From a virus: a stretch of 35,527 bases of DNA. Of the stretch, positions 14,501 to 35,527 are shown in pieces. The notes under the pieces were generated by a model. It was not told where the DNA came from and ran no database searches. It saw only the letters and a list, made by a program, of their open reading frames with translations. How positions within the stretch are numbered: position 1 is the stretch's first letter; every line of letters starts with the position of its first letter. The stretch spans positions 1 to 35,527 of the IMG/VR virus record IMGVR_UViG_3300017963_002993; one strand, written 5' to 3'. The translations under genes and the position numbers were made by a program.

Positions 14501-17280
14501 CACATTTGTTGCAGGATATACCAGGCATATGCAGGGTAGAGATAATCGGTCAATGGCACGGGCTCAAAATACTGGCAACCATTCACCAAGTAACATTGAG
14601 CGCCAAAGTTGCTTAACCCTTGTGGCGTGCTTGACTCGTTGCGCTTGGCACAATACCACCTGTAACCCCGACCATCGGGACCCGTATAGCCGTAGACCCC
14701 GCCATAGTCGGGGCGACAATAGACGCATCGCCGTGATTCGAGCCGACATGCTCGGGGGTTGTAGGCCCCGAAGGCAACTTCGTAAAAGTAGTTGATCTCG
14801 AAAGCGGACACGTTGACTCTAAGGTCTTCATATCCCGCGACGCCATTAACTGTCGAGCCCAAGTAGACTGTTGATTCACACGACTCATGGTCTTGATCTC
14901 CTAAATCATGGGTCACAAATAAGCGTCGATTCGTTACAAGCCCCGCGCCCGGAGCGCCAGGGTCCGTGACAGTCAAACTTAGCGTGTTAGAGTCCTGACA
15001 GAGATTCCCCGCGCGGTCAACCATGCCGCCCGCCGGGATCTGTATTGTATAAGCTCCCGTTGCAAGACAAGGCACATCGAACTCAAAAACAACGTCCGTG
15101 CCTATGATGTTCACCGGGTCCACCGCGCCGCCGTTGATGCTGATGGCCGAAGCAATCACACCTGCGACGGGCCTGTCAAACGTCGCCACAACGTGCGCGA
15201 GCGATCCGGTCCAAATTGTAGGGGCGTCCGTCGTCAATGTCGCCGTGGGACCGTCGCCCAAATACTCGACACTCAGCGTATTGCTTGCCGTGTTGAGGAG
15301 CACACCCGGCCACGTTCCATCAATGCCGACATCCCAGCCCACGGGCGCGCCCGGCCCAGGTCCCAGATATGCGTGATAGCACAGGTCCGCCGGCAACTGG
15401 CATGTAATCATTCCCGAGGTTGCGCCCCCGATCAGGCTTGGCGTGAGGTCGAACGTGTAATGATCGGACGCCACTTGCACCCAGTTGCTCAGGGTAGCGT
15501 TTACAATGTAGAGTTCCGAGGATAACAACCCGCCCACGCCGCCATTGTGAAACTTTAGCACGCACGGAATCGGCCCGCTGTTCACTGTGCTCGCCCCGGT
15601 CGTATATAAGACCGGGTCCGGTTGGTACCAACGATTCAAACCATTGTCAAGGTATGACGCGCCCGTGGTCCAATTGTGAGCAAGCGTGTTCGATACCGCG
15701 TTGTCATTGCCAGCTTCGTCCTTGCAGACAGTCGCCGCGACTTGCACGGACGGACTAGCGCCTTTGACCACGAGCACAAACGTATATTTTGATCCGTCGC
15801 CCCCGAAAGCCTCAATCTCAGCATCCGCATTCGGCGTGATGTCTGCCTCGCTGAAACCATATACCGGCTTCGGCGTAGTCCCGTCCGCTTCGAAAAACTC
15901 CACCATAACATCAATGGCTTTGTTGGTCGTATTCGTCGCTTCACTTGAGGTCAGATCGCAATCCGGAGCGTCGGTGTTGTACTCCAATTTAATCCGCGTT
16001 GCATGCGTCGGCTGCCCGCCCGTCTCATTCGCCGCCCCATAGGGCAATTCAATCGTGACATCTTGCGGGCTTGTGCTAGGATTGTTGACCGTGAAGTGGA
16101 GCCGGTAGTGGTCATCCGCTCCACCAACGCGCGTGAGTGATGTTTTGGTGATATTGGTCACACTGAAATCCGACATCCCCAGGCCGGTCACATCCTCCTT
16201 GAATTGTATGTCGATTGTGTTAGGCGTTGTGTTGAACGTGATCCGCTGCGCGCCTGCCGATGAAAATACCATGCAACAACGCCGCGGCTCAGCGGTCTCA
16301 CTGGAACAGTCCACATCCACCCAATTACCATTGATCAGAGCCCGTACCCAGAAAGACTTTTGGCCGGCGTCATTGACGAAATAGTGAGAGACGGCGCAAT
16401 CGTCGCCGTTGTCATCCTTGAGGCGGAACGCGCCGCTAGACCATTGCGCCGACCGCGAGTCATACACAACTGACTTGCGGACGCCATAGAAAAATGATGG
16501 ATACTCAATAGGATACCAGTCTTGCGGGAAGTTGTATTCCCGGCCAATCCAAATTTGCCGTGTTACTGGGTTCGAATCGCGCGACGTATTGAAGGCGTCT
16601 CCGACATCCTTATCAAGGGTTAGGGTTAGAGTAGATGGGCGAGCAGGAGAAAGCCCCTCTTGGATACCAGAGATCGCCACAATGTGACTGTGCATACCCA
16701 ACGCACAGTTATTACCCAAAAGTGCCACGTAATCCTGAACCTGTATCGGCGTTGCACCGTGGATATAGCCGCGCGGGTCATGGCCTTGGCCAACTGCCGT
16801 ATTGATTACAATTTGGTTTCCGGTTGCGGAGATGACGGTATAGTAAGTGCCATCCTGGAAGTTCGGCTTTTTTGTTCCGTCCCATCCCATGCCACCGTAG
16901 AGCGTGGATTGAAACGCCCCGTTGAAAATGACTGACCACCATCCGTTGGTCCACTTTTCCAATGACCACAAGAATAGCTGCATCATCAGTAATTGATGGT
17001 CGAGATCTTTCGCGCTCTGCGATGCGGTGAACGGATTCGCGCCGACATACTTCCCGCCCTTTGTGTTCGCTAGCGCCCATCCCTTTTTCGATTCGTGATT
17101 GGTGGTTTGCGCCAAGTGACAGTCCTGGCAGTTGGTTATAGGACACCAAACAATCGAGCCGCCCGACATGCTCGGGGCGCAATACGGGAACCCCGAGATA
17201 TATGGGGCAGCTGCCCAGTATCCACCAGGGGCGTCCGAATGCACAAAATGATCAAGCTCGTGTCCCATGTTAGCAGGCAT
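11533..17280 (-). CDS. Giant tail/host-recognition protein (1915 aa)
   Basis: The largest gene in the window, lying where lambda-like phages encode the central tip or fibre protein. The N-terminal 350 residues are rich in Trp, Gly and Cys; the region about 360-560 and again about 640-780 shows immunoglobulin-like beta-sandwich sequence (ATVCKDEAGNDNAVSNTLAH; IPAGGMVDRAGNLCQDSNTL), as in bacterial Big/CBM-like adhesion domains. A cysteine-rich patch follows (CRLESRRCVYCRPDYGG), and the C-terminal thousand residues are aromatic-rich without a domain I recognise. There is no lambda gpJ-like hub sequence. Starts at 17280 and 17268 are both possible and neither has a good ribosome site; translation may be coupled, since the gene overlaps the previous stop. 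Confidence 0.75.
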   Translation of the reverse strand: MPANMGHELDHFVHSDAPGGYWAAAPYISGFPYCAPSMSGGSIVWCPITNCQDCHLAQTTNHESKKGWALANTKGGKYVGANPFTASQSAKDLDHQLLMMQLFLWSLEKWTNGWWSVIFNGAFQSTLYGGMGWDGTKKPNFQDGTYYTVISATGNQIVINTAVGQGHDPRGYIHGATPIQVQDYVALLGNNCALGMHSHIVAISGIQEGLSPARPSTLTLTLDKDVGDAFNTSRDSNPVTRQIWIGREYNFPQDWYPIEYPSFFYGVRKSVVYDSRSAQWSSGAFRLKDDNGDDCAVSHYFVNDAGQKSFWVRALINGNWVDVDCSSETAEPRRCCMVFSSAGAQRITFNTTPNTIDIQFKEDVTGLGMSDFSVTNITKTSLTRVGGADDHYRLHFTVNNPSTSPQDVTIELPYGAANETGGQPTHATRIKLEYNTDAPDCDLTSSEATNTTNKAIDVMVEFFEADGTTPKPVYGFSEADITPNADAEIEAFGGDGSKYTFVLVVKGASPSVQVAATVCKDEAGNDNAVSNTLAHNWTTGASYLDNGLNRWYQPDPVLYTTGASTVNSGPIPCVLKFHNGGVGGLLSSELYIVNATLSNWVQVASDHYTFDLTPSLIGGATSGMITCQLPADLCYHAYLGPGPGAPVGWDVGIDGTWPGVLLNTASNTLSVEYLGDGPTATLTTDAPTIWTGSLAHVVATFDRPVAGVIASAISINGGAVDPVNIIGTDVVFEFDVPCLATGAYTIQIPAGGMVDRAGNLCQDSNTLSLTVTDPGAPGAGLVTNRRLFVTHDLGDQDHESCESTVYLGSTVNGVAGYEDLRVNVSAFEINYFYEVAFGAYNPRACRLESRRCVYCRPDYGGVYGYTGPDGRGYRWYCAKRNESSTPQGLSNFGAQCYLVNGCQYFEPVPLTDYLYPAYAWYILQQMWIGIPGAFAQIFAGDNSIRNWKWQRVGHPSITGFLTPALELAYTPQYTPQFQPQGCGNFGFWDVVEEEFHQGVAHDLTETPTWTTPNTGTPSYGTLPAKLAWEGWCAGRKNQRDNAVLDNDSDPYGEWRSWPFINCWGASRDGSQPITGDLALARYCRLNQGNDTSEQILIPAIAASDGELQVRTHGAVEYNTWRQDLTRTTPADPLAYYGAMVRILPHPHRTDNLVAWSTGYVRSFTPITGGYRIECYLGVHWGQYFWVDPAYGPTIVVSNWYGGYNVVGAPEWARNRNPLGYENATLVNAQGPAKGAREGYVMAFLHPTNPVWLTTWPIGGDPGQEVPAWIITKANGCAGAQLSWQDNGPHKGAADDTFYDDHIAPCGSRPYNEKNWGSKADVLEVADPSGTLAALIAAGTVVAGSRFAVANGTQTFGPEQGDPNFFWTRKYVDNWQAISSADIDEIDFTLGLYAVKLATAQALFAEDEICFRVDAPQGRLSQAAFVSARDINDTLRAMTAIDTTTSEVYTSGDIVTVQAIRYQMLSYFSAPSTRMDWTDSLPDPPQQLVADAIAAKGRTTSIAALYSGNLYTWAAAGLSTDPLGKPWVWNDPDDQRLPPGPGGECPTFPFYGGIEFGPLGATFGYAKWGTWFPYYWYFLGEGYVIDPWYDANDDWFVGNGEIYSWYANFALAAANGFALELNVDVATPVTVDLDNTAVIIYGATYDVSYKASASAIRFPLLDRLPDGVTIAAAYMDVLVTIGTWERYVAWEYYAEFPMGEIKHWNEFHTTDPEPWDHKFRWKYNTQYDGFYTPAVGACPDAENFVLESGDTIGDVYGAAGTYDLVSNPAIPSVKLALVGVKPNGDFDWLGVSLTVRAYYTGDPAATRQSCDVTNIANAYMTYRKRGYLHFALVVISPLATSNAGLNQVIEPISTTPCNSYPWQDNQKVFPLLCKIPHFYLTNPDVTVYDPMTVQFTATSATPMAGAGPLGNLPHFK

Positions 17281-22216: not shown

Positions 22217-24130
22217 TTACAATCGCGCGCCCTCTTCGATTGGGCCATTGCGAAAGTGCTCATATTTCAGGCGGCGGGAAATCGCTTCCTCGTGTTGCTC
22301 GCGGAGCTCCTCGTTTTTTTTGGCAAGCTCAGTCACGCGCATTTGTCGCCGCAGAGATTCCTCTTGCGCTTGGAGTTGGTCGGCGCGTTCCATTGCCCCT
22401 TGTCGCGCAATATGCCCCTCTGGGAACTCAGCGGCGTGGCCCTCGAAATACTCAACGCCCATTGATAACCGATTCGCGCGGCGTTGCAACCCCAACATGC
22501 GCTCATCGGCCACGGTCGCCCGATACTCCTCGGCGGTCATGGGTGGACGCTCTTGCGCGGTGGCCGGGAGCGCTGGCATTGCTCGCGGTTGACTGCGCCG
22601 TACGTAGTCCTTCGTTGCCTGCAAATGCTCCGGACTCATCATGGCCCAAGACCAGAGGCCCTCGCGCTCGGCCTTGGGAAATGCTGATCCCCGCAAGCTC
22701 TTGGCCAGTTCCGACCGGCCCAAAAATTTTTGCGCCGCGCCCTCGCCCTCAAAGACGAGCTTCCGCATGTAGCCGATTTCTTGCGGGCTTTTGCCTGCCT
22801 TGCGCATATCGGTTGCCATTCGACGGAAGCCCTTTTTCCATGATGCGCCTTGCGCTCCGGCTTCCAAATCGACGCCCGCGGCTTTCGCCATCGCCTGTAT
22901 GGAATCCGGGATCGCCGCCATTGCGATCTTGTTCATTGCGTCATTTGGGATGATGTTTTCCGATAACGCGAAAATTTCCGCAAGCCACTTTGGCGCTCCC
23001 GCCTCGCGGTATCGACCCACAGCCAACTGATGACGCACGTCTTGTTGGCTTATGCCACGCAATCCCATTTCTTGTTCGATGGGGATGTTCGTTTGCCACT
23101 GCTGAATCGACTTGCGCAACTCGGCGAACCCGTAAGCAGCATCTTTCAACCGTTGGCTGAGCTTTTGGCCTACTGCGTCCTCTGCCGTCTCGCCAATGCG
23201 CCGCACGGCATCCTCAACTTGGTCTACGTTCTGAGTAAGCGATTGTGCAGCCGCAACGGCTTCTGCCCCAAAAATCTCTTGGATTGTCGAGGCGTCTAAA
23301 CTTGAAAGGTCTCGCAACTGATCAAGCAAGCTCCCGCGCGTCGTGTAACCTTCTTCGATGGCTTTGTCCATGCGCAAAATGACGTTGCGCACCCCTGTGA
23401 ATGTCCGCTCACTCCGGCCCCCGCGTTGCGTTGCCACGACCAATGCGCCGCCCAGCTCGTCGAGGGAATGCCCCAACGGTTCGGCAACGGCGGCCACGTC
23501 CGGCAGCAAACGCGCGAGATCTTCGAATGTCAAAAAGCCTAGCTCGGCGGTCCGATTGATTTTGGCCTGCGCTTCCGAAACACTGTCCAACGTCTTCCCA
23601 TAAATCAGATACGTCTTGAGCAGTGCCTTCACGCTCAGCGGCAACTCTGTTCCGGTAAGGCGTGTCAACTCGATTGCGCTCGACAAAACGTCTTTTTGAA
23701 TGGCTTCGCTCAAATGTGACGCACCAGACTGGATGGAGAACAGAGCGTCCGCAATTTCCTTGCGCGTGATTCCAAAGGCATTGGCCAGCTCGAGCACTTC
23801 GTCTTTCTTGCTGGCAATCTTTGATAGGTTGTCGCCCAGCGACAGGAGCCCGGTCATCTCGCTTTCGAATTTGGAAGACTCCTCGCGCAGGCGCTTGTAC
23901 TCCTCGACGGTCGCGCGGACGGCAGCGCTCACTCCAGCCGCGCCAACGAAGCCGCCTGCCAACGTCATGGCTGTGCGCTTCATGCCGCCAAGCGTTCGGT
24001 CGAAACGCCGTGCCTGACGGATCTGACCACGGAATGCCGTCTCGCTTTTTTTCTGCGTGGCAATGAGACGACGGAAACCCTGAACGGCTTTCGCTTCCTC
24101 GGAATCTAAAACGAATGTTACGTTTCCCAT
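22217..24130 (-). CDS. Tail tape measure protein (637 aa)
   Basis: The N-terminus (about residues 10-95) is a charged helix followed by a Gly/Ala hydrophobic segment (TAMTLAGGFVGAAGVSAAVR), then a region typical of PhageMin_Tail-type tape measures (AFGITRKEIADALFSIQSGA; ELGFLTFEDLARLLPDVAAV; GALVVATQRGGRSERTF). The C-terminal third is long coiled helix (MRVTELAKKNEELREQHEEA). It sets tail length in siphoviruses; at roughly 1.5 Angstrom per residue it would give a tail near 95 nm, which is an estimate. It follows the tail tube and two small presumptive assembly genes. Confidence 0.85.
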   Translation of the reverse strand: MGNVTFVLDSEEAKAVQGFRRLIATQKKSETAFRGQIRQARRFDRTLGGMKRTAMTLAGGFVGAAGVSAAVRATVEEYKRLREESSKFESEMTGLLSLGDNLSKIASKKDEVLELANAFGITRKEIADALFSIQSGASHLSEAIQKDVLSSAIELTRLTGTELPLSVKALLKTYLIYGKTLDSVSEAQAKINRTAELGFLTFEDLARLLPDVAAVAEPLGHSLDELGGALVVATQRGGRSERTFTGVRNVILRMDKAIEEGYTTRGSLLDQLRDLSSLDASTIQEIFGAEAVAAAQSLTQNVDQVEDAVRRIGETAEDAVGQKLSQRLKDAAYGFAELRKSIQQWQTNIPIEQEMGLRGISQQDVRHQLAVGRYREAGAPKWLAEIFALSENIIPNDAMNKIAMAAIPDSIQAMAKAAGVDLEAGAQGASWKKGFRRMATDMRKAGKSPQEIGYMRKLVFEGEGAAQKFLGRSELAKSLRGSAFPKAEREGLWSWAMMSPEHLQATKDYVRRSQPRAMPALPATAQERPPMTAEEYRATVADERMLGLQRRANRLSMGVEYFEGHAAEFPEGHIARQGAMERADQLQAQEESLRRQMRVTELAKKNEELREQHEEAISRRLKYEHFRNGPIEEGARL

Positions 24131-28381: not shown

Positions 28382-29341
28382 TTACGTGGTGATGTTGTCA
28401 AGCAACTGCAAGCACTCGGTGAACAGGATTTTTTCGTCCGTGTCCATGCGCGCGCGGATGATGTCCGACCGAACCGTTTCGTCGCGGTAGCTTTCCATCG
28501 TTGCGCCGATAGACGAACCATCTTGTCCCCAATGGAACATGCGCCCGAGTCCCGGCTCTCGAATGTCATTTGACGTGCAGATCCGGGCAACCGCCGCGTA
28601 TTCATCCGACCAAATCGGGGAAATGCTCACGCTCTGCTCGCTGTTTGCCGTGTTCTTCGCGCTTCCCGCAACGATGATGTATGGTAGGTCGAAAGCATCC
28701 TGGAGCTCCGCAATCCCGATTTCCGCAGGCAGCACTGACTTTACAGCTTTCACTTTGTCAATGATTTCCGAGCACCGTCGCACGTTGAGAAACACTCGGC
28801 GGTTGACGATGAGCGCATTGGCCCAAAGACCGGTTGCGTCCCATAGCGCCTTGACCCTGGCGGCAACGTCCGTAATCGGCGTTGCGGCGGTCACGTCATC
28901 CCATTCATTCGTAACACTGGTCGGCGTCCATGTTGACGCGTTGAACACCATGTCCGCCACGCGCTTTTCCATATTGCGCAACACAACATCGCGGGCACGT
29001 TGCGCGGAGACCAGCTCTGCGTCGAAGAAGTCTACGTAGAGGTCGGCTTCCCGATCATCCACGGGCTCCTCGGCGCCATGCTCCTCGGTCGCGTAGCTGT
29101 CGGTTGTGAAGTCCCAGTGCGACCGAGCGTAACCCGTGCCGGGCGCACGTCGCGTTTCGCGGTTCTCCAGCAATTGTTCGATGGGGATTTTCCCAAAGAT
29201 TCCGCTCGACTTGGCAACCTCGATGACCGGCAACACCTGGGGTGCAATAAAGCCCGCGCGGTCGGCGGCCAAATCGAACTCTTCCAAACTCCCGGCCAAC
29301 TCGGGCCGCAGAGTCGAGAGGCTTGATGTTGGGTGAGGCAT
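28382..29341 (-). CDS. Major capsid protein (319 aa)
   Basis: The ATG at 29341 follows AAAGGAG by eight bases; the GTG at 29350 is too close to that site. The sequence fits the lambda gpE-like HK97-fold capsid group: an N-arm, then a strand-helix region with RRAPGTGYARSHWDFTTDSY, a long spine-like helix region (FDAELVSAQRARDVVLRNME) and a P-domain with LWANALIVNRRVFLNVRRC. It lies directly after a decoration protein and protease-scaffold gene, the usual lambda order. No cleaved delta domain is apparent at its N-terminus. Confidence 0.8.
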   Translation of the reverse strand: MPHPTSSLSTLRPELAGSLEEFDLAADRAGFIAPQVLPVIEVAKSSGIFGKIPIEQLLENRETRRAPGTGYARSHWDFTTDSYATEEHGAEEPVDDREADLYVDFFDAELVSAQRARDVVLRNMEKRVADMVFNASTWTPTSVTNEWDDVTAATPITDVAARVKALWDATGLWANALIVNRRVFLNVRRCSEIIDKVKAVKSVLPAEIGIAELQDAFDLPYIIVAGSAKNTANSEQSVSISPIWSDEYAAVARICTSNDIREPGLGRMFHWGQDGSSIGATMESYRDETVRSDIIRARMDTDEKILFTECLQLLDNITT

Positions 29342-29427
29342 CGGTTTCACTCCTTTAGTGAGTTTCGCCGATCCTCGCTTTCGCCTTTGTTACCTCCGTG
29401 AAGTTTGATCCGCTTTCCGCTATCCGC

Positions 29428-29841: not shown

Positions 29842-30303
29842 TTAGATCTCGCGTTCCGCGAATGCCAGCGCTCCTTTCCGGTTTCCTTGGCGCTCATTAT
29901 AAGCGACCACGTACGCCTTGTGAAGTTCCGGGTCCGCTTTTCGCGCGGCCTTGATGGCATCGGCGTGTCTCTTGCCCTTGGCCAAGTGCGCCCCAATAGC
30001 CGATTCCCAACGATCAATCGCATCGGCGTTGGTCGCCTCTTCCTCATCGCCACCTTCAGACCCCAGCGCGTCAACCCCCGGCTTGGAGGCCTTCGCCTTG
30101 AGCTCCTCGATCTCCTTGGCCTGATGCGCCATCCATGCCCCCTTGGCTTCGTCCGCCGTAGCCTTGCGTTCGAGCTGATCACACAAGAAGTCGGCGGTCG
30201 CCTGTGGGACGGCGGCCTTCAGTTCTTGGTAGGTCGCCGCCACGGGCTCTTGTGACGGTGTTTCCGCAACAATAGCGGTGTCCGCCGTTGTTTCTGTCGC
30301 CAT
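29842..30303 (-). CDS. Nested in-frame scaffold protein candidate (153 aa)
   Basis: Within the protease frame an ATG at 30303 is preceded by a perfect AAAGGAG and ten bases of spacing, giving a product that begins MATETTADTAIVAETPSQEP and is helical and acidic in its first half. Lambda makes its scaffold Nu3 from an internal start in gene C in the same way. The internal ribosome site is seen; its use is inferred by analogy. Confidence 0.6.
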   Translation of the reverse strand: MATETTADTAIVAETPSQEPVAATYQELKAAVPQATADFLCDQLERKATADEAKGAWMAHQAKEIEELKAKASKPGVDALGSEGGDEEEATNADAIDRWESAIGAHLAKGKRHADAIKAARKADPELHKAYVVAYNERQGNRKGALAFAEREI

Positions 30304-31179
30304 TTTTGTCTTGCTCCTTTCTCTGTTTGTTTCCTCTCGCAAATCTTCGAGGACCAATTCAAACGGCTTTATGCCGTCGATCAACCCTACTTTGATTGCG
30401 TCCGCGCCCACGTAAACCCGACCATCCGCCAAGGCTTGCACGACCTGAATGCCCATGCGTCGGCCCCGCGCGACGGCCTCATTGAACTGATTGCCCAACT
30501 TGTCCACCGTCGCCTGAAATTCCGTCAAATGCTCCTCGGTGACTTCCGTCCCCGGCGTGCCCGCTCCCTTGAATTCGCCGGTCCGCAAAACGTGGACCTT
30601 GATTCCCTCGCTCTCGGCAAACGCGGAAGAATCCTCCACAACCAGAAAAACACCGATGCTGCCGATCAATGCGTTTGCGTTTGCGAAAACCTTGTTGGCC
30701 TGCGATGCGACATAGTAGGCCGCGCTTGCGCCCCGGTCCTCAATGTAGGCGTAGACTGGCTTTTCTTTGGACGCTCGCGCCACGTCGTCGGCGAGATCGG
30801 GAATGCCCGATACCGTCCCGCCAGGCGAATCAATTACAAGCGCAATACCAGCGATGGAATCATCAACAAGCGCATTGCGCACTTGCCGCCGGGCCCGGAC
30901 GGTTGAGGCAGCCTCCATCAAGCTAGAGCCATATTTCATGAGCGTACCGCTCAGTTGAATCATGGCGATTCCGCCAGTAAGCACGGGGTAGCTTATGTCA
31001 GTCGCCACTTGGGGCTCGGCAAGTTGCTTGGCGATATGGTCGCCTAAATCGCGCGCTCGAACCGTTGTTGCAAGGGCCTGGAACGTCGCGGACTCCATCG
31101 CCCACGGACCGAAATACTGATCAAGGTGCGAAACGCGCTCGGTGGCCCACCCCGGCGGCTGGATGTCAAACTCAAGCAT
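29842..31179 (-). CDS. S49 (SppA-like) capsid maturation protease (445 aa)
   Basis: Motifs of the SppA/S49 family are present: DSPGGTVSG (about 117-125), the nucleophile Ser152 in RGASAAYYVAS, GSIGV (173-177) and the general-base Lys204 in EFKGAGTPG. As in lambda gpC the protease domain is followed by a helical acidic C-terminal part (from about residue 290) that can act as scaffold. The start at 31179 overlaps the portal stop by eight bases and has GGGAG ahead; the earlier ATG at 31197 has a site too close to it. It would cut scaffold and itself during prohead maturation. Confidence 0.85.
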   Translation of the reverse strand: MLEFDIQPPGWATERVSHLDQYFGPWAMESATFQALATTVRARDLGDHIAKQLAEPQVATDISYPVLTGGIAMIQLSGTLMKYGSSLMEAASTVRARRQVRNALVDDSIAGIALVIDSPGGTVSGIPDLADDVARASKEKPVYAYIEDRGASAAYYVASQANKVFANANALIGSIGVFLVVEDSSAFAESEGIKVHVLRTGEFKGAGTPGTEVTEEHLTEFQATVDKLGNQFNEAVARGRRMGIQVVQALADGRVYVGADAIKVGLIDGIKPFELVLEDLREETNRERSKTKMATETTADTAIVAETPSQEPVAATYQELKAAVPQATADFLCDQLERKATADEAKGAWMAHQAKEIEELKAKASKPGVDALGSEGGDEEEATNADAIDRWESAIGAHLAKGKRHADAIKAARKADPELHKAYVVAYNERQGNRKGALAFAEREI

Positions 31180-32734
31180 CGTCGCTCCCATCGTCATCCT
31201 CTTTCATGGGTTTTGCAGGTTGTGCCTTTTGCTGAGGCAGAGCCGCCAGATCGCGCCATGTTACCCCGGCGTTCACGCTCTGCCCGTTGATTTCATCGGC
31301 CTTGGCAATTGCCAAGGAAATTATGATTGCGCGGTCCTCGACGATCTCGGCAGCAACATCGTCCCAGTCCTGGCCTCGTTCCGCATGTAAGCGGCGAGGC
31401 GAGATAAGACCGTTCTCCAACCGATGACTATCGGCCTGGGCGTCCTTCAATGGCTCGATATATGGCCACGTCGGCGGGTTCCAGTTGTGGGCAAAAACAT
31501 CAATGCCGGACCGCATGGCAGCCCGCCGAATTGCGGAATCATCCGCATGCCATTGGCGCAGCTTCCAGACATACGTCGGGCGATATAGGCGCTCAATCAA
31601 CCGCTGCTGCATCTCGCGAAAGCCTATGCGGGCTTGATCTACGGCGCCACGCCAGCCAGAGAAATTCGTCTCGCTTGCGTCCAATGTTACCAGCACCAAT
31701 GGAAGCCCGAGGTTGTTTCCGATAGTTGTCAAGATTTGCTTGATATGTGGGAAATATTCGGGATTGGGAACGCTCGGAGAAAAGCCCTGGAGTTTTTCTC
31801 CCGGCGCTCCGGTGACTTCCATTCCTGGCGCCACGCCCTCGACTGTGCGAGTCGTCGAATCGCTCAAGGTCTCAGTGGCGGTGTCGCCCATGGTAGGGGG
31901 CGTGCCTCCCGAGAAATCAATCTCCCGCTCACGGAAAAACGCGAAGCAGCTCACAACTTGCTGTTGCACAAGCTTCGCAAATTCAATGTCCTCCAACATA
32001 CCCATCTTATCAAACACCGGGGCAAACGCCGTCACGCCGCGGGTTTGCGAAATCCGCCTCGGATTGTAAACGTGAAAGACCTGGCGATAGCCCTTGTTGT
32101 CGCGGACCGGGTAGGGGCGCATGTCACTGACAAGCCGCACGGTTTTACTCGGCGCAACGTCCTCTTTGGTGAACCAATACTCAAGGCGCCTACGGTATTT
32201 GTTCAGCAACACCCCATGCACAACCGGCCTGCTCGTGTTTGTTGGCGTCCGCAAGCGGTGGGCCTCGACAGCTTCCAAGGCCCCCTCCTCGCGATCAGGC
32301 AGAAAACACACGTCGCCATCCACAAACATCTGGCGCAACGCAAGCCGGACTTGAGAATTGAAATTGTGCTCTCCTGCGCGGTCGCATTGTTCCGGGTCTA
32401 TCGCCCATGCCTTCCAGTGAGCCAGCAAATCCGCATCCAAGCCAGGATCGCCAGTCGCCGGATCTAGCTTGATTCCACCTTGCAAAATGTTCGTCACGGC
32501 TCGGTTGACAATGTAGCCTACATTGGCGTCGTTGCGGTCGAAGTCGCGCGCATATTCCATCATGCGCAGATAGTCCGAATCGTTGCGATAGTGATAGTCG
32601 GCATGCGCCCCCGATGACGGAATGCCTGAGCGTATACGACGAAAGCGATTGGACCGCGCCGCAGCATAATCCGCCCGCATACCCTCATAGGCGTCGAAAA
32701 CGGAGGTAGGCTCTTGGCGTCGTCTGCGTCTCAT
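31172..32734 (-). CDS. Portal protein, lambda gpB family (520 aa)
   Basis: The sequence follows the lambda-type portal pattern: a basic N-terminus, DSDYLRMMEYARDFDRNDAN, ALRQMFVDGDVCFLPDREEG, the crown/stem portion with YRQVFHVYNPRRISQTRGVT and an internal helix FAKLVQQQVVSCFAFF, then NNLGLPLVLVTLDASETNFS and GWRGAVDQARIGFREMQQRL. Length matches the family (about 530 aa). It forms the twelve-fold ring through which DNA enters. The start overlaps the gpW-like stop as ATGA. Confidence 0.9.
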   Translation of the reverse strand: MRRRRRQEPTSVFDAYEGMRADYAAARSNRFRRIRSGIPSSGAHADYHYRNDSDYLRMMEYARDFDRNDANVGYIVNRAVTNILQGGIKLDPATGDPGLDADLLAHWKAWAIDPEQCDRAGEHNFNSQVRLALRQMFVDGDVCFLPDREEGALEAVEAHRLRTPTNTSRPVVHGVLLNKYRRRLEYWFTKEDVAPSKTVRLVSDMRPYPVRDNKGYRQVFHVYNPRRISQTRGVTAFAPVFDKMGMLEDIEFAKLVQQQVVSCFAFFREREIDFSGGTPPTMGDTATETLSDSTTRTVEGVAPGMEVTGAPGEKLQGFSPSVPNPEYFPHIKQILTTIGNNLGLPLVLVTLDASETNFSGWRGAVDQARIGFREMQQRLIERLYRPTYVWKLRQWHADDSAIRRAAMRSGIDVFAHNWNPPTWPYIEPLKDAQADSHRLENGLISPRRLHAERGQDWDDVAAEIVEDRAIIISLAIAKADEINGQSVNAGVTWRDLAALPQQKAQPAKPMKEDDDGSDDA

Positions 32735-33018
32735 CGGTAATACTCAAAGCTAGCGACTCGCACTTCGCCGCTCTCGGTCGTCGTGTCGTTTTCTTGCCAC
32801 CACTCAATCGCCATATCCAATTGGTTTTCGATTTTCTGGTAAGCGTCGCGCACGGAAGAACCGCCTTTGCGAACCTCTTCCATCATGCGGCGCAACAACA
32901 TGCGGCAAGCCTCGATGAACAACTTCGCCTTTGCCGTGGAACCCTCCACGTCATAATCAGCGTTATCATCGTACTGGGCTTGGATTTCTGCCAGTGTGCT
33001 AGAAGAACTTAGTGCCAT
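32731..33018 (-). CDS. gpW-like head-tail joining protein candidate (95 aa)
   Basis: The ATG at 33018 is chosen; a TTG at 33096 would extend the frame through the promoter and leader hairpins. No Shine-Dalgarno is visible and a strong hairpin lies 21 bases upstream. The product is a helical protein (TLAEIQAQYDDNADYDVEGS; KLFIEACRMLLRRMMEEVRK) whose size and place directly before the portal gene match gpW, which helps close the portal. It is the first gene of the late operon. Confidence 0.65.
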   Translation of the reverse strand: MALSSSSTLAEIQAQYDDNADYDVEGSTAKAKLFIEACRMLLRRMMEEVRKGGSSVRDAYQKIENQLDMAIEWWQENDTTTESGEVRVASFEYYR

Positions 33019-33025
33019 AATCACA

Positions 33026-33085
33026 GAAGGGCGGGAGAGGGGACCGGCGAACCGGTCCCCAAGGCGGAAGCGCGGATCGCCCTTC
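33026..33085 (-). promoter_or_regulatory. Structured leader before the late operon
   Basis: GGGGACCGG (33039-33047) and CCGGTCCCC (33052-33060) form a perfect nine-pair hairpin with a four-base loop (TTCG on the minus strand). It is nested inside an outer arm GAAGGGCG (33026-33033)/CGCCCTTC (33078-33085). The structure begins about where transcription from the 33094-33121 promoter would start and ends seven bases before the start codon. It lacks a T tract and so is not a simple terminator. Confidence 0.6.
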
Positions 33086-33093
33086 GCTTTACG

Positions 33094-33121
33094 CAACTAA
33101 CACAAATTAGGGATTTGTCAA
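33094..33121 (-). promoter_or_regulatory. Candidate late-operon promoter
   Basis: A perfect TTGACA (33121-33116) is followed after 16 bases by a weak TAGTTG (33099-33094). The stretch CTTGACAAATC...ATT.GTG.TA is shared with the strong rightward promoter at 2927-2954. A poor -10 box suggests dependence on an activator or a modified polymerase. Confidence 0.45.
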
Positions 33122-33131
33122 GGGTTCCGAG

Positions 33132-33172
33132 TTCGGTTTTTCGGATTGTTCGGAATTTCGGTTTTTCGGATT
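33132..33172 (-). repeat. Direct repeats upstream of the late promoter
   Basis: TTCGGTTTTTCGGATT occurs exactly at 33132-33147 and 33157-33172 (period 25), with additional TTCGGA and TTCCGA boxes between and beside them. They sit 11-51 bases upstream of the -35 element, where an activator or UP-like element would bind. The rest of 33019-33200 holds no gene. Confidence 0.65.
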
Positions 33173-33200
33173 TTTACCCACACACTTCCTGAGTCACTGC

Positions 33201-33635
33201 CTACTCCGGCGGAGCTGGGATCTTGGTCCAATAAGCCACGGGCGGCGTAGACAACATGCACAATCGCGCACTGTTCAGATACCAATCCTCCCCCGCGAAA
33301 TAGGCCATCATCGGACCACCGTCTATGGATTGGCCACGCAACCAGACGAGATAATATCCCTTCTTCTCAGGAAGCTCCGTGTTACAATCCATCCATTCAA
33401 TGAATTTGTGTACAGGAGCTGACACACGCACTTCCTCATAGCGGCCGATATAGCATGCTCGCCCACGGCAATCTGGGCGAAGCACAATAAGGCCTCCACT
33501 ACGAAATCGGATTGCAACATGGCTTTCCATGTCGATCCTCTGAAGACGTTCGCCCTGTTCGTTCTCGAATTGGCCTAAGACAGCGCCCTCGAATTCGTGC
33601 AAATTCTGGTTGCCGCACAACTGCCAAGTTCTCAT
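33201..33635 (-). CDS. DUF551-containing small protein (144 aa)
   Basis: The start overlaps the preceding stop as ATGA. The C-terminal half (from about residue 80) has the order IEWMDCNTELPEKKGYYLVW, AYFAGEDWYL and VAYWTKIPAPPE, as in the DUF551 family, whose members end in a WMPLPxPP-like motif and are frequent in phages with no known function. The first half (RLQRIDMESHVAIRFRSGGL) is a separate beta-rich segment. It is probably transcribed with the Cas12f-like gene. Confidence 0.7.
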   Translation of the reverse strand: MRTWQLCGNQNLHEFEGAVLGQFENEQGERLQRIDMESHVAIRFRSGGLIVLRPDCRGRACYIGRYEEVRVSAPVHKFIEWMDCNTELPEKKGYYLVWLRGQSIDGGPMMAYFAGEDWYLNSARLCMLSTPPVAYWTKIPAPPE

Positions 33636-33940
33636 GATCTCTCTCCTGTCGGTATTTGTTCACACAACCAACGAATTACGTCAGGTGGCGTGTTGACGAA
33701 TCGCTTATTGTTGAGTCGCGCCCCTTGCCGCTGAAGCCCCATCCACAAACGTTTAAACGCCTTTGCTTGATTCATGCTCAACATCACCTCCACGTGACGC
33801 TGTGCATACTGACCCTCAACCAAGTCTTCCAGAGGCAATTCCAGCCGAGTCATGTTTTGGCGTGTCGCCCCGGTTTCCGGCGCAACGGTCAACATCCCGT
33901 TGCTTTGCTGTTGTTGCTGTCTCGAACGGTGTTTACTCAT
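33632..33940 (-). CDS. Small basic protein downstream of the nuclease (102 aa)
   Basis: AAAGGAC is placed about seven bases before the ATG at 33940, 27 bases after the nuclease stop. The N-terminus is Gln-rich (RQQQQQSNG) and basic; the rest is helical (HVEVMLSMNQAKAFKRLWMG; PPDVIRWLCEQIP). No family is recognised. It is coupled to the DUF551 gene by ATGA, so the three genes appear to form one unit. Confidence 0.65.
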   Translation of the reverse strand: MSKHRSRQQQQQSNGMLTVAPETGATRQNMTRLELPLEDLVEGQYAQRHVEVMLSMNQAKAFKRLWMGLQRQGARLNNKRFVNTPPDVIRWLCEQIPTGERS

Positions 33941-33967: not shown

Positions 33968-35332
33968 TTACGCCATTGCCTTATTTGCTCTTTCCGCTAT
34001 CTGTTTGTCAATGCCGAGCATTGACAAGTTACGCGCCGCGTTTTTGTCCGCATGGTCTTTGTGCTCGCAAACAACACACTTGAACGCAGCTGATCCGGCT
34101 TTGCCTTTTGGACGATTTCGCCGATCTATGCAACCACATTTTGCGCATCTCTGCGATGTATAACGCGGATCTACATAGACAATTTGCGCGCCTATTTGTT
34201 TCGCTTGCCATTCAATCGCGGTCTTCAATGTATATGGCGCCCAATGCCGCGCCAACCATTTATCATTTTTGATATTCGCGGAAAGGTCTTCCATTTGCCA
34301 AATACCCGCGCCTTCGCGTTTCGCAATGTCCGCGATTGTTCCAGCAATCCCGCGTGACGCATTGTTGATTAACCGTCGCTCTTTGCTCCGTAACTTTCTC
34401 AAACGCGCTTGCACATTGTCGCGCATTGGACCCATGAGTCCGCTATGCTTGCTTTTCAATGCGCGGACTATGCGCCGGATTTCGTTCTTTATCAGGCCTC
34501 TGGAATTCAAAATCTCGCGCCCCCGGCCTATCAACATTGCCCATGCGCGAGGCTTGCCCTTTTCCCGGATATGTATTGCGGCTGGCACCATAACGCCAAA
34601 ATCTATACCCAGAACCACGTCCTCGGATAACGCGCAATCGCGTTGAGGATATGCAATCACAACACCAGCCTTCCATTTTGCTTCATGCGCTCGCCGACTC
34701 GTATTTCGATATACTTTACAGTCGCGAAGTTCCCAGTCCTTTTTTTCGGGGTCCTGAGAAATCACGTTTTCGATTTGTTGTAGTTGTGTTTTGTCTCGGC
34801 GTTTCACGCGCAACCCATAGGCAACCCACGTTGACAGTCCGTTTTCCTTTGCCCACTTTTGCGCAAACATTTGGACGCACAACCAATATTGATTTGCATC
34901 CTTGACTACCCGCGTACAAGTCGCGCGAATAGGCAACGGCAACGTTCCATCCGTGCGAAATGTAGCTAGGCTTCTTGTGCCCTTCAGTAATAACGCTTTC
35001 CCGGGCTCGCCAGTAAACTGCGTTTCCGCGTTCCGACATATGCCGTTCGCCATTTGTGCGCACATTGGGCCATTCGCAATATCCAACTCCTCGAATATGT
35101 CCTTGTAACCATTTAGGCGCAGGCGCTTACGCTCGTTTGGTGGCAATTTTTTTTTCTTGCACAAATAGGTATTGAAGGAATGTTGATTCGCTATATCACC
35201 AGCGGTTCTCGCCATTTGTCGCATTGTGTCATATATGAGCTTTCTTTGTTCTTCCGTGATGTCTTCCACGGTATCCGTGCGGGGATAGTACTCCTTGATT
35301 TGGCCTACTCCAAATGTTAGTGTTTTGATCAT
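33968..35332 (-). CDS. Cas12f-like / TnpB-superfamily RNA-guided nuclease (454 aa)
   Basis: The ATG at 35332 follows AGGAGAAAG; the frame is open further, into the tandem repeat, and that extension is rejected. The C-terminal half carries the complete RuvC and zinc set: Asp244 in LGIDFGV, Glu348 in WQMEDLS, Cys396/Cys399 and Cys419/Cys422 in a four-cysteine ribbon, and Asp429 in HADKNAARNL. The stretches VDPRYTSQRCAKCG and IDRRNRP and the end GIDKQIAERANK closely follow AsCas12f1 as I remember it, and the LPLPIR element before the RuvC half also has a Cas12f counterpart. AsCas12f1 is 422 aa, so the length fits. It should cleave DNA guided by RNA; no tnpA lies beside it. Family membership is firm; whether it is Cas12f or a TnpB relative is not settled. 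Confidence 0.9.
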   Translation of the reverse strand: MIKTLTFGVGQIKEYYPRTDTVEDITEEQRKLIYDTMRQMARTAGDIANQHSFNTYLCKKKKLPPNERKRLRLNGYKDIFEELDIANGPMCAQMANGICRNAETQFTGEPGKALLLKGTRSLATFRTDGTLPLPIRATCTRVVKDANQYWLCVQMFAQKWAKENGLSTWVAYGLRVKRRDKTQLQQIENVISQDPEKKDWELRDCKVYRNTSRRAHEAKWKAGVVIAYPQRDCALSEDVVLGIDFGVMVPAAIHIREKGKPRAWAMLIGRGREILNSRGLIKNEIRRIVRALKSKHSGLMGPMRDNVQARLRKLRSKERRLINNASRGIAGTIADIAKREGAGIWQMEDLSANIKNDKWLARHWAPYTLKTAIEWQAKQIGAQIVYVDPRYTSQRCAKCGCIDRRNRPKGKAGSAAFKCVVCEHKDHADKNAARNLSMLGIDKQIAERANKAMA

Positions 35333-35405
35333 AATTCTTCTTTCTCCTGCTTCTTGCGCGTGGGTTGCGACCGCCGGATGGCGCGGCAAGGACGGTTGAA
35401 TCCCT

Positions 35406-35527
35406 CCTCCACCTCGCGCGTGGCCCGGACCTTGCGCGAGTGGCCGGACCCGGTCCTCCACCTCGCGCGTGGCCCGGACCTTGCGCGAGTGGCCGGACCC
35501 GGTCCTCCACCTCGCGCGTGGCCCGGA
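35406..35527. repeat. 49-bp perfect tandem repeats with internal hairpin, running off the window
   Basis: Two full copies (35406-35454, 35455-35503) and the first 24 bases of a third are identical. Each unit holds CTCGCGC and GCGCGAG as a seven-pair inverted repeat with a 14-base loop, and GGACC-C-GGTCC spans each unit junction. The two halves of the unit resemble each other, suggesting growth from a unit of about 24 bp. No variable spacers are visible. It lies 73 bases before the Cas12f-like start. The copy number cannot be known, as the array reaches the edge. Confidence 0.85.

What the first reader, a model, noticed from the sequence alone, without database searches (positions are those of the whole stretch)
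33968..35332. Phage-encoded miniature Cas12f-like nuclease with an intact active site
A 454-aa protein in a phage structural gene region carries all three RuvC acids (D244, E348, D429) and the four-cysteine ribbon, and its C-terminal half follows AsCas12f1-like sequence closely from memory, including the terminal IDKxIAE motif. It is not the nuclease-dead type used as a transcription regulator. No tnpA, cas1 or cas2 is nearby. It could target competing phages or plasmids, act in homing, or guard the virus's own locus.
Basis: partly seen in the sequence, partly recalled or inferred. Interest (0 to 1): 0.85.

Follow-up and report, generated by a model that had tools for sequence, protein, structure and literature searches.

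The report
Phage-carried miniature CRISPR nuclease (Cas12f)
This phage fragment carries an intact gene for a small RNA-guided DNA-cutting enzyme of the Cas12f family; its closest relatives, one of them on another phage, sit beside real CRISPR arrays, so it is probably one half of a phage-borne CRISPR system whose guide half lies just past the end of the sequenced fragment.

Summary
An intact 454-aa gene lies at 33968-35332 on the MINUS strand. RuvC residues D244/E348/D429 align with AsCas12f1 D225/E324/D401, and all four zinc cysteines are present. Profile scores alone do not separate Cas12f from TnpB (a true TnpB control scored similarly), but the tree, structure and relatives do. The window protein forms a 100/100-supported clade with three proteins at 41-44% identity, on the Cas12f1 side of the tree and outside the TnpBs. 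Two of the three have CRISPR arrays next to the gene: a Kiritimatiellae MAG (5 repeats) and a 60-kb phage with terminase, portal and capsid genes (9 repeats, no cas1). All three share a folded tracrRNA-like element downstream of the gene. The AlphaFold model matches Cas12f1 structures best. By synteny with related phages, the gene sits between the expected terminase position (off the contig) and the portal block. The window's own guide locus is not seen: the contig ends 195 nt upstream, inside a 49-nt tandem repeat. A degenerate V-F-like repeat at 35371-35340 is only suggestive. Best reading: a divergent phage-encoded type V-F effector that cuts DNA of rival elements. Phage V-F systems are already known, so this is a new member.

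The parts
33968..35332 (-). cas12f-like gene, 454 aa, ATG start at 35332, stop at 33968
   Evidence: homology; N-terminal alignment with L015/L016
34601..34603 (-). codon of RuvC-I Asp244 (= AsCas12f1 D225)
   Evidence: codon GAT read
34289..34291 (-). codon of RuvC-II Glu348 (= AsCas12f1 E324)
   Evidence: codon GAA read
34046..34048 (-). codon of RuvC-III Asp429 (= AsCas12f1 D401)
   Evidence: codon GAC read
34025..34234 (-). Cas12f1-like TNB (target-nucleic-acid-binding zinc ribbon) domain, PF07282
   Evidence: 65.8 bits
35340..35371 (-). candidate degenerate or terminal CRISPR direct repeat GTCGCAACCCACGCGCAAGAAGCAGGAGAAAG abutting the gene start (suggestive only)
   Evidence: rank 3 (32 nt) and 5 (18 nt) of the 71 kb of both strands, 0 of 400 shuffles; L023 has a truncated last repeat in the same place
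35405..35527 (.). 49-nt perfect tandem repeat, 2.5 copies, 77% GC; the contig ends inside it; nature unresolved
33632..33940 (-). 102-aa phage ORF, homologue of the ORF that directly follows terminase large subunit in related phages (L005 5340-5666); marks the insertion point
32731..33096 (-). 121-aa phage ORF, homologue of the ORF preceding portal in L003, L004 and L005
31172..32734 (-). phage portal protein
   Evidence: phrog_21, 6e-64

Best explanation
The gene encodes the effector of a phage-borne, adaptation-less type V-F (Cas12f1-lineage) CRISPR system. In the most likely mechanism the protein pairs, probably as a dimer as in solved Cas12f1 structures, with a crRNA/tracrRNA guide made from a small array and folded RNA that lie upstream of the gene, off the contig. 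It then recognises a PAM and cuts double-stranded DNA of competing phages or plasmids (or host DNA) with its single RuvC site. SHOWN here: intact gene, intact active site, Cas12f-type fold, Cas12f-side phylogeny, CRISPR arrays and a conserved guide-like RNA next to the closest relatives (one of them a phage), and location inside a phage packaging/structural block. INFERRED: that this phage has its own guide locus, that the complex cuts, and what it targets.
For: Window plus L015, L016 and L039 form a 100/100 clade, separated from nine TnpBs at 96/93 and grouped with AsCas12f1 and the other CRISPR-linked proteins. L016 has a 5-repeat array and phage L039 a 9-repeat array with variable 33-36 nt spacers; most more distant full-length relatives also have arrays. 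A conserved RNA 3' of the gene in L015/L016/L039 has 26 predicted pairs, 8 of them with compensatory change; a model built from it also finds a site in L034 (E 3e-4). L039 is a real phage contig: terminase, portal, major head protein, endolysin. Predicted structure (pLDDT 84): best PDB matches are all Cas12f1, Foldseek E 1e-26 against 7e-12 for the best TnpB; VIA-align Z 25.6 against 16.4. Catalytic residues and zinc ligands conserved. No Cas1 in the window or four other viral contigs, as usual for phage CRISPR systems (PMC7162821).
Against: No CRISPR array, spacer or tracrRNA is demonstrated in the window; the clade's RNA model finds nothing convincing there (best E 0.014, partial, inside an ORF). 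Only 28 nt separate the gene from the next ORF downstream, where L039 and L016 have their array, so the guide locus would have to be upstream. L015, in the same clade, has the RNA element but no array in the piece held. pTM is 0.61, and whole-chain superpositions have large rmsd (domain orientation).
Confidence: 0.82

Rival explanations
1. A TnpB-type nuclease (IS200/605 or IS607 cargo, or a domesticated stand-alone TnpB) guided by an omega-RNA from its own 3' end, working in homing or in keeping the gene in the phage.
For: TnpB and Cas12f share fold and motifs; PADLOC Cas12f/Cas12u3 profiles score a true IS605 TnpB (B. subtilis plasmid, next to tnpA) at 1.8e-47, close to the window protein at 7e-57. 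TnpBs on phages exist in the same search.
Against: Falls with Cas12f, not with nine sampled TnpBs; closest relatives have CRISPR arrays; no TnpA or resolvase; the next phage ORF starts 28 nt after the stop, leaving no room for a 3' omega-RNA and transposon end.
Confidence: 0.08
2. A Cas12f effector used without its own array, loading guides made by a host CRISPR locus or by the host's tracrRNA.
For: Array and tracrRNA not seen in the window; L015 has the RNA element but no array in the piece held; L011-L013 show a relative next to an array of a quite different repeat type.
Against: Most relatives, including the phage ones L007, L010, L014 and L039, carry their own array next to the gene; five relatives have it on the 5' side, exactly where this contig is cut off.
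Confidence: 0.08
3. A guide-directed repressor or anti-host regulator rather than a cutting enzyme (binding without cleavage).
For: One huge-phage Cas14 with a lost catalytic residue was proposed as such (PMC7162821).
Against: All three catalytic acids and the four cysteines are intact.
Confidence: 0.02

Closest known systems
AsCas12f1 (type V-F1; Sulfoacidibacillus thermotolerans Y002, formerly Acidibacillus sulfuroxidans; locus L026)
   Same: Overall fold, RuvC triad, TNB zinc ribbon, C-terminal IDKxIAE, size (422 against 454 aa), CRISPR association of the group
   Different: Only about 25% identity; the window protein lies on a long separate branch (stem about 1.8 changes/column); the clade's tracrRNA-like element is its own type (model R1 does not find AsCas12f1's)
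Phage-encoded type V-F / V-U CRISPR systems of huge phages (Al-Shayeb et al. 2020, PMC7162821) and landfill viruses (PMC12607003)
   Same: Phage-borne small type V effector, no spacer acquisition genes, intact catalytic residues
   Different: This is a 35.5-kb phage fragment, not a demonstrated huge phage, and its array is not seen; I could not place it in those papers' trees because their sequences were not at hand
L039 (IMG/VR 3300022181_000098): phage Cas12f with 9-repeat array
   Same: Same clade, 41% identity over the full length; on a phage; no Cas1
   Different: Gene, RNA and array lie next to the lysis genes with the array 3' of the gene; in the window the gene lies next to the portal block with no room 3'
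TnpB (IS200/IS605)
   Same: Shared RuvC/TNB core and fold
   Different: Not in the TnpB part of the tree; no TnpA, no transposon end; relatives use CRISPR arrays

Membership tests
Type V-F (Cas12f) CRISPR effector | RuvC triad D/E/D plus CxxC...CxxC TNB ribbon | tested here: met
   aligned with AsCas12f1 D225/E324/D401
Type V-F (Cas12f) CRISPR effector | Phylogenetic placement with Cas12f and outside TnpB | tested here: met
   (clade 100/100 with CRISPR-linked relatives; split from nine TnpBs 96/93; TnpB sampling limited)
Type V-F (Cas12f) CRISPR effector | Cas12f1-like fold including the N-terminal half | tested here: met
   top matches all Cas12f1, model residues 1-449 aligned
Type V-F (Cas12f) CRISPR effector | Adjacent CRISPR array with variable spacers | tested here: inconclusive
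   none in the window; contig ends 195 nt 5' of the gene in a 49-nt tandem; present in L016 and L039 of the same clade
Type V-F (Cas12f) CRISPR effector | tracrRNA encoded in the locus | tested here: inconclusive
   clade model R1 finds no convincing site in the window; upstream flank not sequenced
Type V-F (Cas12f) CRISPR effector | Guide-dependent dsDNA cleavage as a homodimer | not testable with these tools
   needs biochemistry
TnpB of IS200/IS605 or IS607 | TnpA (Y1 or serine recombinase) in the element | tested here: not met
   none in the record; stand-alone TnpBs exist, so weak on its own
TnpB of IS200/IS605 or IS607 | Placement among TnpBs | tested here: not met
TnpB of IS200/IS605 or IS607 | omega-RNA overlapping the 3' end and running past it to the transposon right end | tested here: inconclusive
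   only 28 nt to the next phage ORF, no Rfam match; no dedicated omega-RNA model was run
Nuclease-dead TnpB-like regulators (TldR type) | Loss of RuvC catalytic residues | tested here: not met
   all three present

The most novel reading that the evidence does not exclude
The window phage and its relatives represent a separate, previously uncharacterised subfamily of V-F systems that moves between phages and PVC/Sumerlaeota bacteria, with its own tracrRNA architecture. In this phage the effector is inserted between terminase and portal with an unusual short-period (49-nt) repeat locus in place of an ordinary repeat-spacer array, which could be a new way of encoding guides.
Probability: 0.07. 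Interest if true: 0.75.

Novelty: new member of a known kind. Interest (0 to 1): 0.45.

Why it matters
It adds a divergent, catalytically intact, very small RNA-guided nuclease carried by phages of uncultured bacteria, and a testable relative (phage L039) whose effector, tracrRNA-like RNA and nine-repeat array are all present on one contig. Compact effectors of this kind are sought as genome-editing tools, and phage-borne systems without spacer acquisition pose the open question of where their spacers come from and which rivals they attack.

Tried and rejected
(1) Profile scores as proof of Cas12f membership: rejected, because a true IS605 TnpB scores nearly as well against the same PADLOC models. 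(2) The 49-nt tandem as a CRISPR array: not accepted; units are identical with no variable spacers, only 2.5 copies, 77% GC; its similarity to the candidate repeat is weak (66 of 1000 shuffles reach it), and no viral contig holds the unit. (3) tracrRNA in the window by covariance model: best hit E 0.014 at 17140-17206, partial and inside the 1915-aa ORF, rejected. (4) Rfam: no match. (5) Spacer targets: L039, L016 and L014 arrays and the 34-nt stretch between tandem and candidate repeat gave no convincing protospacer in 50,697 phage records. (6) Near-identical copies of the gene in viral contigs: none found; L006 is a near-identical phage contig but stops inside portal. (7) V-F-like repeat pattern in viral contigs: besides L039 only four single chance-like hits, three in what looks like terminase-coding DNA and one integrase-like, a warning that the 35371-35340 site could also be chance. 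(9) Candidate relatives in 40 and 388 genomes of the phyla of L015 and L016: only the known loci plus TnpB-like proteins.

Full report
OBSERVATION. The 454-aa ORF is real, intact, and on the minus strand at 33968-35332; the finding's coordinates are right but the strand was not stated. The record is a linear IMG/VR virus fragment of 35,527 bases. Downstream on the same strand lie phage genes: portal (31172-32734), head maturation protease (29842-31197), major head protein (28382-29350), tape measure (22217-24130) and tail proteins. The three RuvC acids D244, E348 and D429 and cysteines C396, C399, C419 and C422 are invariant across 27 homologues and match AsCas12f1 D225, E324, D401, C372, C375, C391 and C394. 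The AsCas12f1 sequence came from locus L026, Sulfoacidibacillus thermotolerans Y002; that this is the AsCas12f1 source strain is from my own knowledge.

WHAT FAMILY. Pfam gives Cas12f1-like TNB at 62.1 bits. NCBIfam guided_TnpB scores 95.1, just under its cutoff of 100, and CRISPR_Cas12f2 is far under its cutoff. PADLOC's best is Cas12u3 at 7e-57 over residues 20-445. As a control I scanned a bona fide IS605 TnpB that sits next to tnpA on a B. subtilis plasmid: it scores 1.8e-47 to the same Cas12u3 profile. Such scores therefore cannot decide membership. Three other lines can. First, a maximum-likelihood tree puts the window protein in a 100/100 clade with L015 (Sumerlaeota MAG), L016 (Kiritimatiellae MAG) and L039 (IMG/VR phage contig), at 41-44% identity over full length. 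This clade falls on the side of AsCas12f1 and the other CRISPR-linked proteins, split from nine TnpBs at 96/93 (a first tree with six TnpB-like proteins agreed). Second, the AlphaFold2 model (pLDDT 84, pTM 0.61) matches AsCas12f, SpCas12f1, OsCas12f and CnCas12f1 best, with TnpB clearly behind (Foldseek E 1e-26 against 7e-12; Z 25.6 against 16.4). Third, the genomic company of the relatives.

CRISPR COMPANY OF THE RELATIVES. Of the full-length relatives fetched, most carry a repeat-spacer array near the gene. In the window's own clade, L016 has five copies of CTTCCAATTTGCGCGTGGGCGTGAGTTGGGGG with 33-35 nt spacers, and L039 nine copies of GTTGCAATCCGCGCGCATGTGCAGGTTGGAGG with 33-36 nt spacers. 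L039's 60-kb contig is a phage: terminase large subunit, portal, major head protein, endolysin, without Cas1. Between gene and array, L039, L016 and (without a visible array) L015 share an RNA element of three stems with 26 predicted pairs, 8 supported by compensatory changes, though from only three sequences. I read it as a tracrRNA; that is inference from position, structure and the known V-F architecture. Other phage-borne relatives with arrays are L007 (Alicyclobacillus phage MMB025, where the gene is annotated 'transposase' and the array is annotated CRISPR), L010, L011-L013 and L014.

THE WINDOW'S OWN GUIDE LOCUS. It is not seen. Downstream, the next phage ORF starts 28 nt after the stop, so an array there as in L039 and L016 is excluded. 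Upstream, only 195 nt exist before the contig ends, inside a perfect 49-nt tandem repeat of 2.5 copies. Five relatives (L007, L010, L014, L023, L030) have their array on the 5' side. At 35371-35340, sense strand, lies GTCGCAACCCACGCGCAAGAAGCAGGAGAAAG. Against a profile of nine V-F repeats it ranks 3rd (32 nt) or 5th (18 nt) of all 71 kb on both strands, and no shuffle of the upstream region of 400 reaches it. At other lengths it ranks 7th (20 nt) and 36th (24 nt), and its 5' half but not its 3' half scores like true repeats left out of the profile. L023 shows just such a truncated last repeat running into its gene start. I noticed the site before testing it, and exact V-F-like 19-mers also turn up by chance in coding DNA, so this stays suggestive. 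The clade's RNA model finds nothing convincing in the window.

WHERE IT SITS. Related phages (L002-L005, portal 52-54% identical) have, in L005, the order terminase small subunit, terminase large subunit, 108-aa ORF, 112-aa ORF, portal. The window's 102-aa and 121-aa ORFs are homologues of these two ORFs. Cas12f therefore sits exactly where the terminase large subunit ends in the relatives, as an insertion, and terminase is expected beyond the contig end. The stretch between the two small ORFs is also variable: a 144-aa ORF in the window, an unrelated long gene in L003. This is the usual picture of accessory genes slipped into a phage operon.

HOW IT LIKELY WORKS. By family knowledge, Cas12f binds a crRNA/tracrRNA pair as a dimer, recognises a PAM and cuts dsDNA with one RuvC site. 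With every catalytic and zinc residue kept, and closest kin that carry arrays, the simplest account is a phage-borne V-F system attacking other mobile elements in the same host. Searches for protospacers gave nothing convincing, so the targets are unknown. No transposase or resolvase that would suggest homing or an IS element is present.

NOVELTY. Phage-encoded type V-F and V-U effectors without acquisition genes and with conserved catalytic residues were reported in 2020 (PMC7162821), and more V-F-near viral effectors in 2025 (PMC12607003). The present gene is a new member of that kind. What is less ordinary is the long-branched clade shared by phages and PVC/Sumerlaeota bacteria, with its own RNA element, and a phage (L039) that holds a complete set ready for testing.

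Noticed in passing
window 35405-35527: Perfect 49-nt tandem repeat (2.5 copies, 77% GC) made of two similar half-units, ending at the contig end just 5' of the cas12f gene; not an ordinary CRISPR array.
   Followed up: partly
L011 5094-5304 (also L012, L013): Large viral contigs (up to 154 kb) carry a distant Cas12f relative next to an array whose repeat (GTCTCCCCCGCGTGTGCGGGGATGGACC) looks like a type I-E repeat rather than a V-F repeat, as if a phage array mimicked a host type I system.
   Followed up: no
L007 3740-4402: Alicyclobacillus phage MMB025: gene annotated 'transposase' is a Cas12f relative with an array just 5' of it; the upstream non-coding region holds what looks like two tracrRNA-like copies (GCCGAGAAGTG motif as recalled from AsCas12f1 tracrRNA).
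   Followed up: partly
L040 5908-6688 and 8072-8324: Viral contig with a TnpB/Cas12-like C-terminal fragment protein (248 aa); a 37-nt repeat family forms a short array 1.4 kb downstream, and an inverted copy sits at the 3' end of that gene.
   Followed up: no
L015 3798-3914 and 6295-6390: Sumerlaeota contig with 24-nt tandem repeats on both sides of its cas12f gene, the contig ending in one of them, next to what reads by eye as a REP-type transposase remnant; it has the tracrRNA-like element but no visible array.
   Followed up: partly
L003 4174-5583: Related phage has a long gene that looks like a ParB-like/DNA methyltransferase fusion in the same variable gap between the 102-aa and 121-aa ORF homologues.
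   Followed up: no
L070 1575-2759: Komagataeibacter phage phiKX1 carries a TnpB-like gene ('transposase') close to its terminase small subunit, another TnpB/Cas12 relative lodged by the packaging genes.
   Followed up: no
window 33131-33174: Short degenerate tandem TTCGGATT-type repeats in the gap between the 144-aa and 121-aa ORFs near portal.
   Followed up: no
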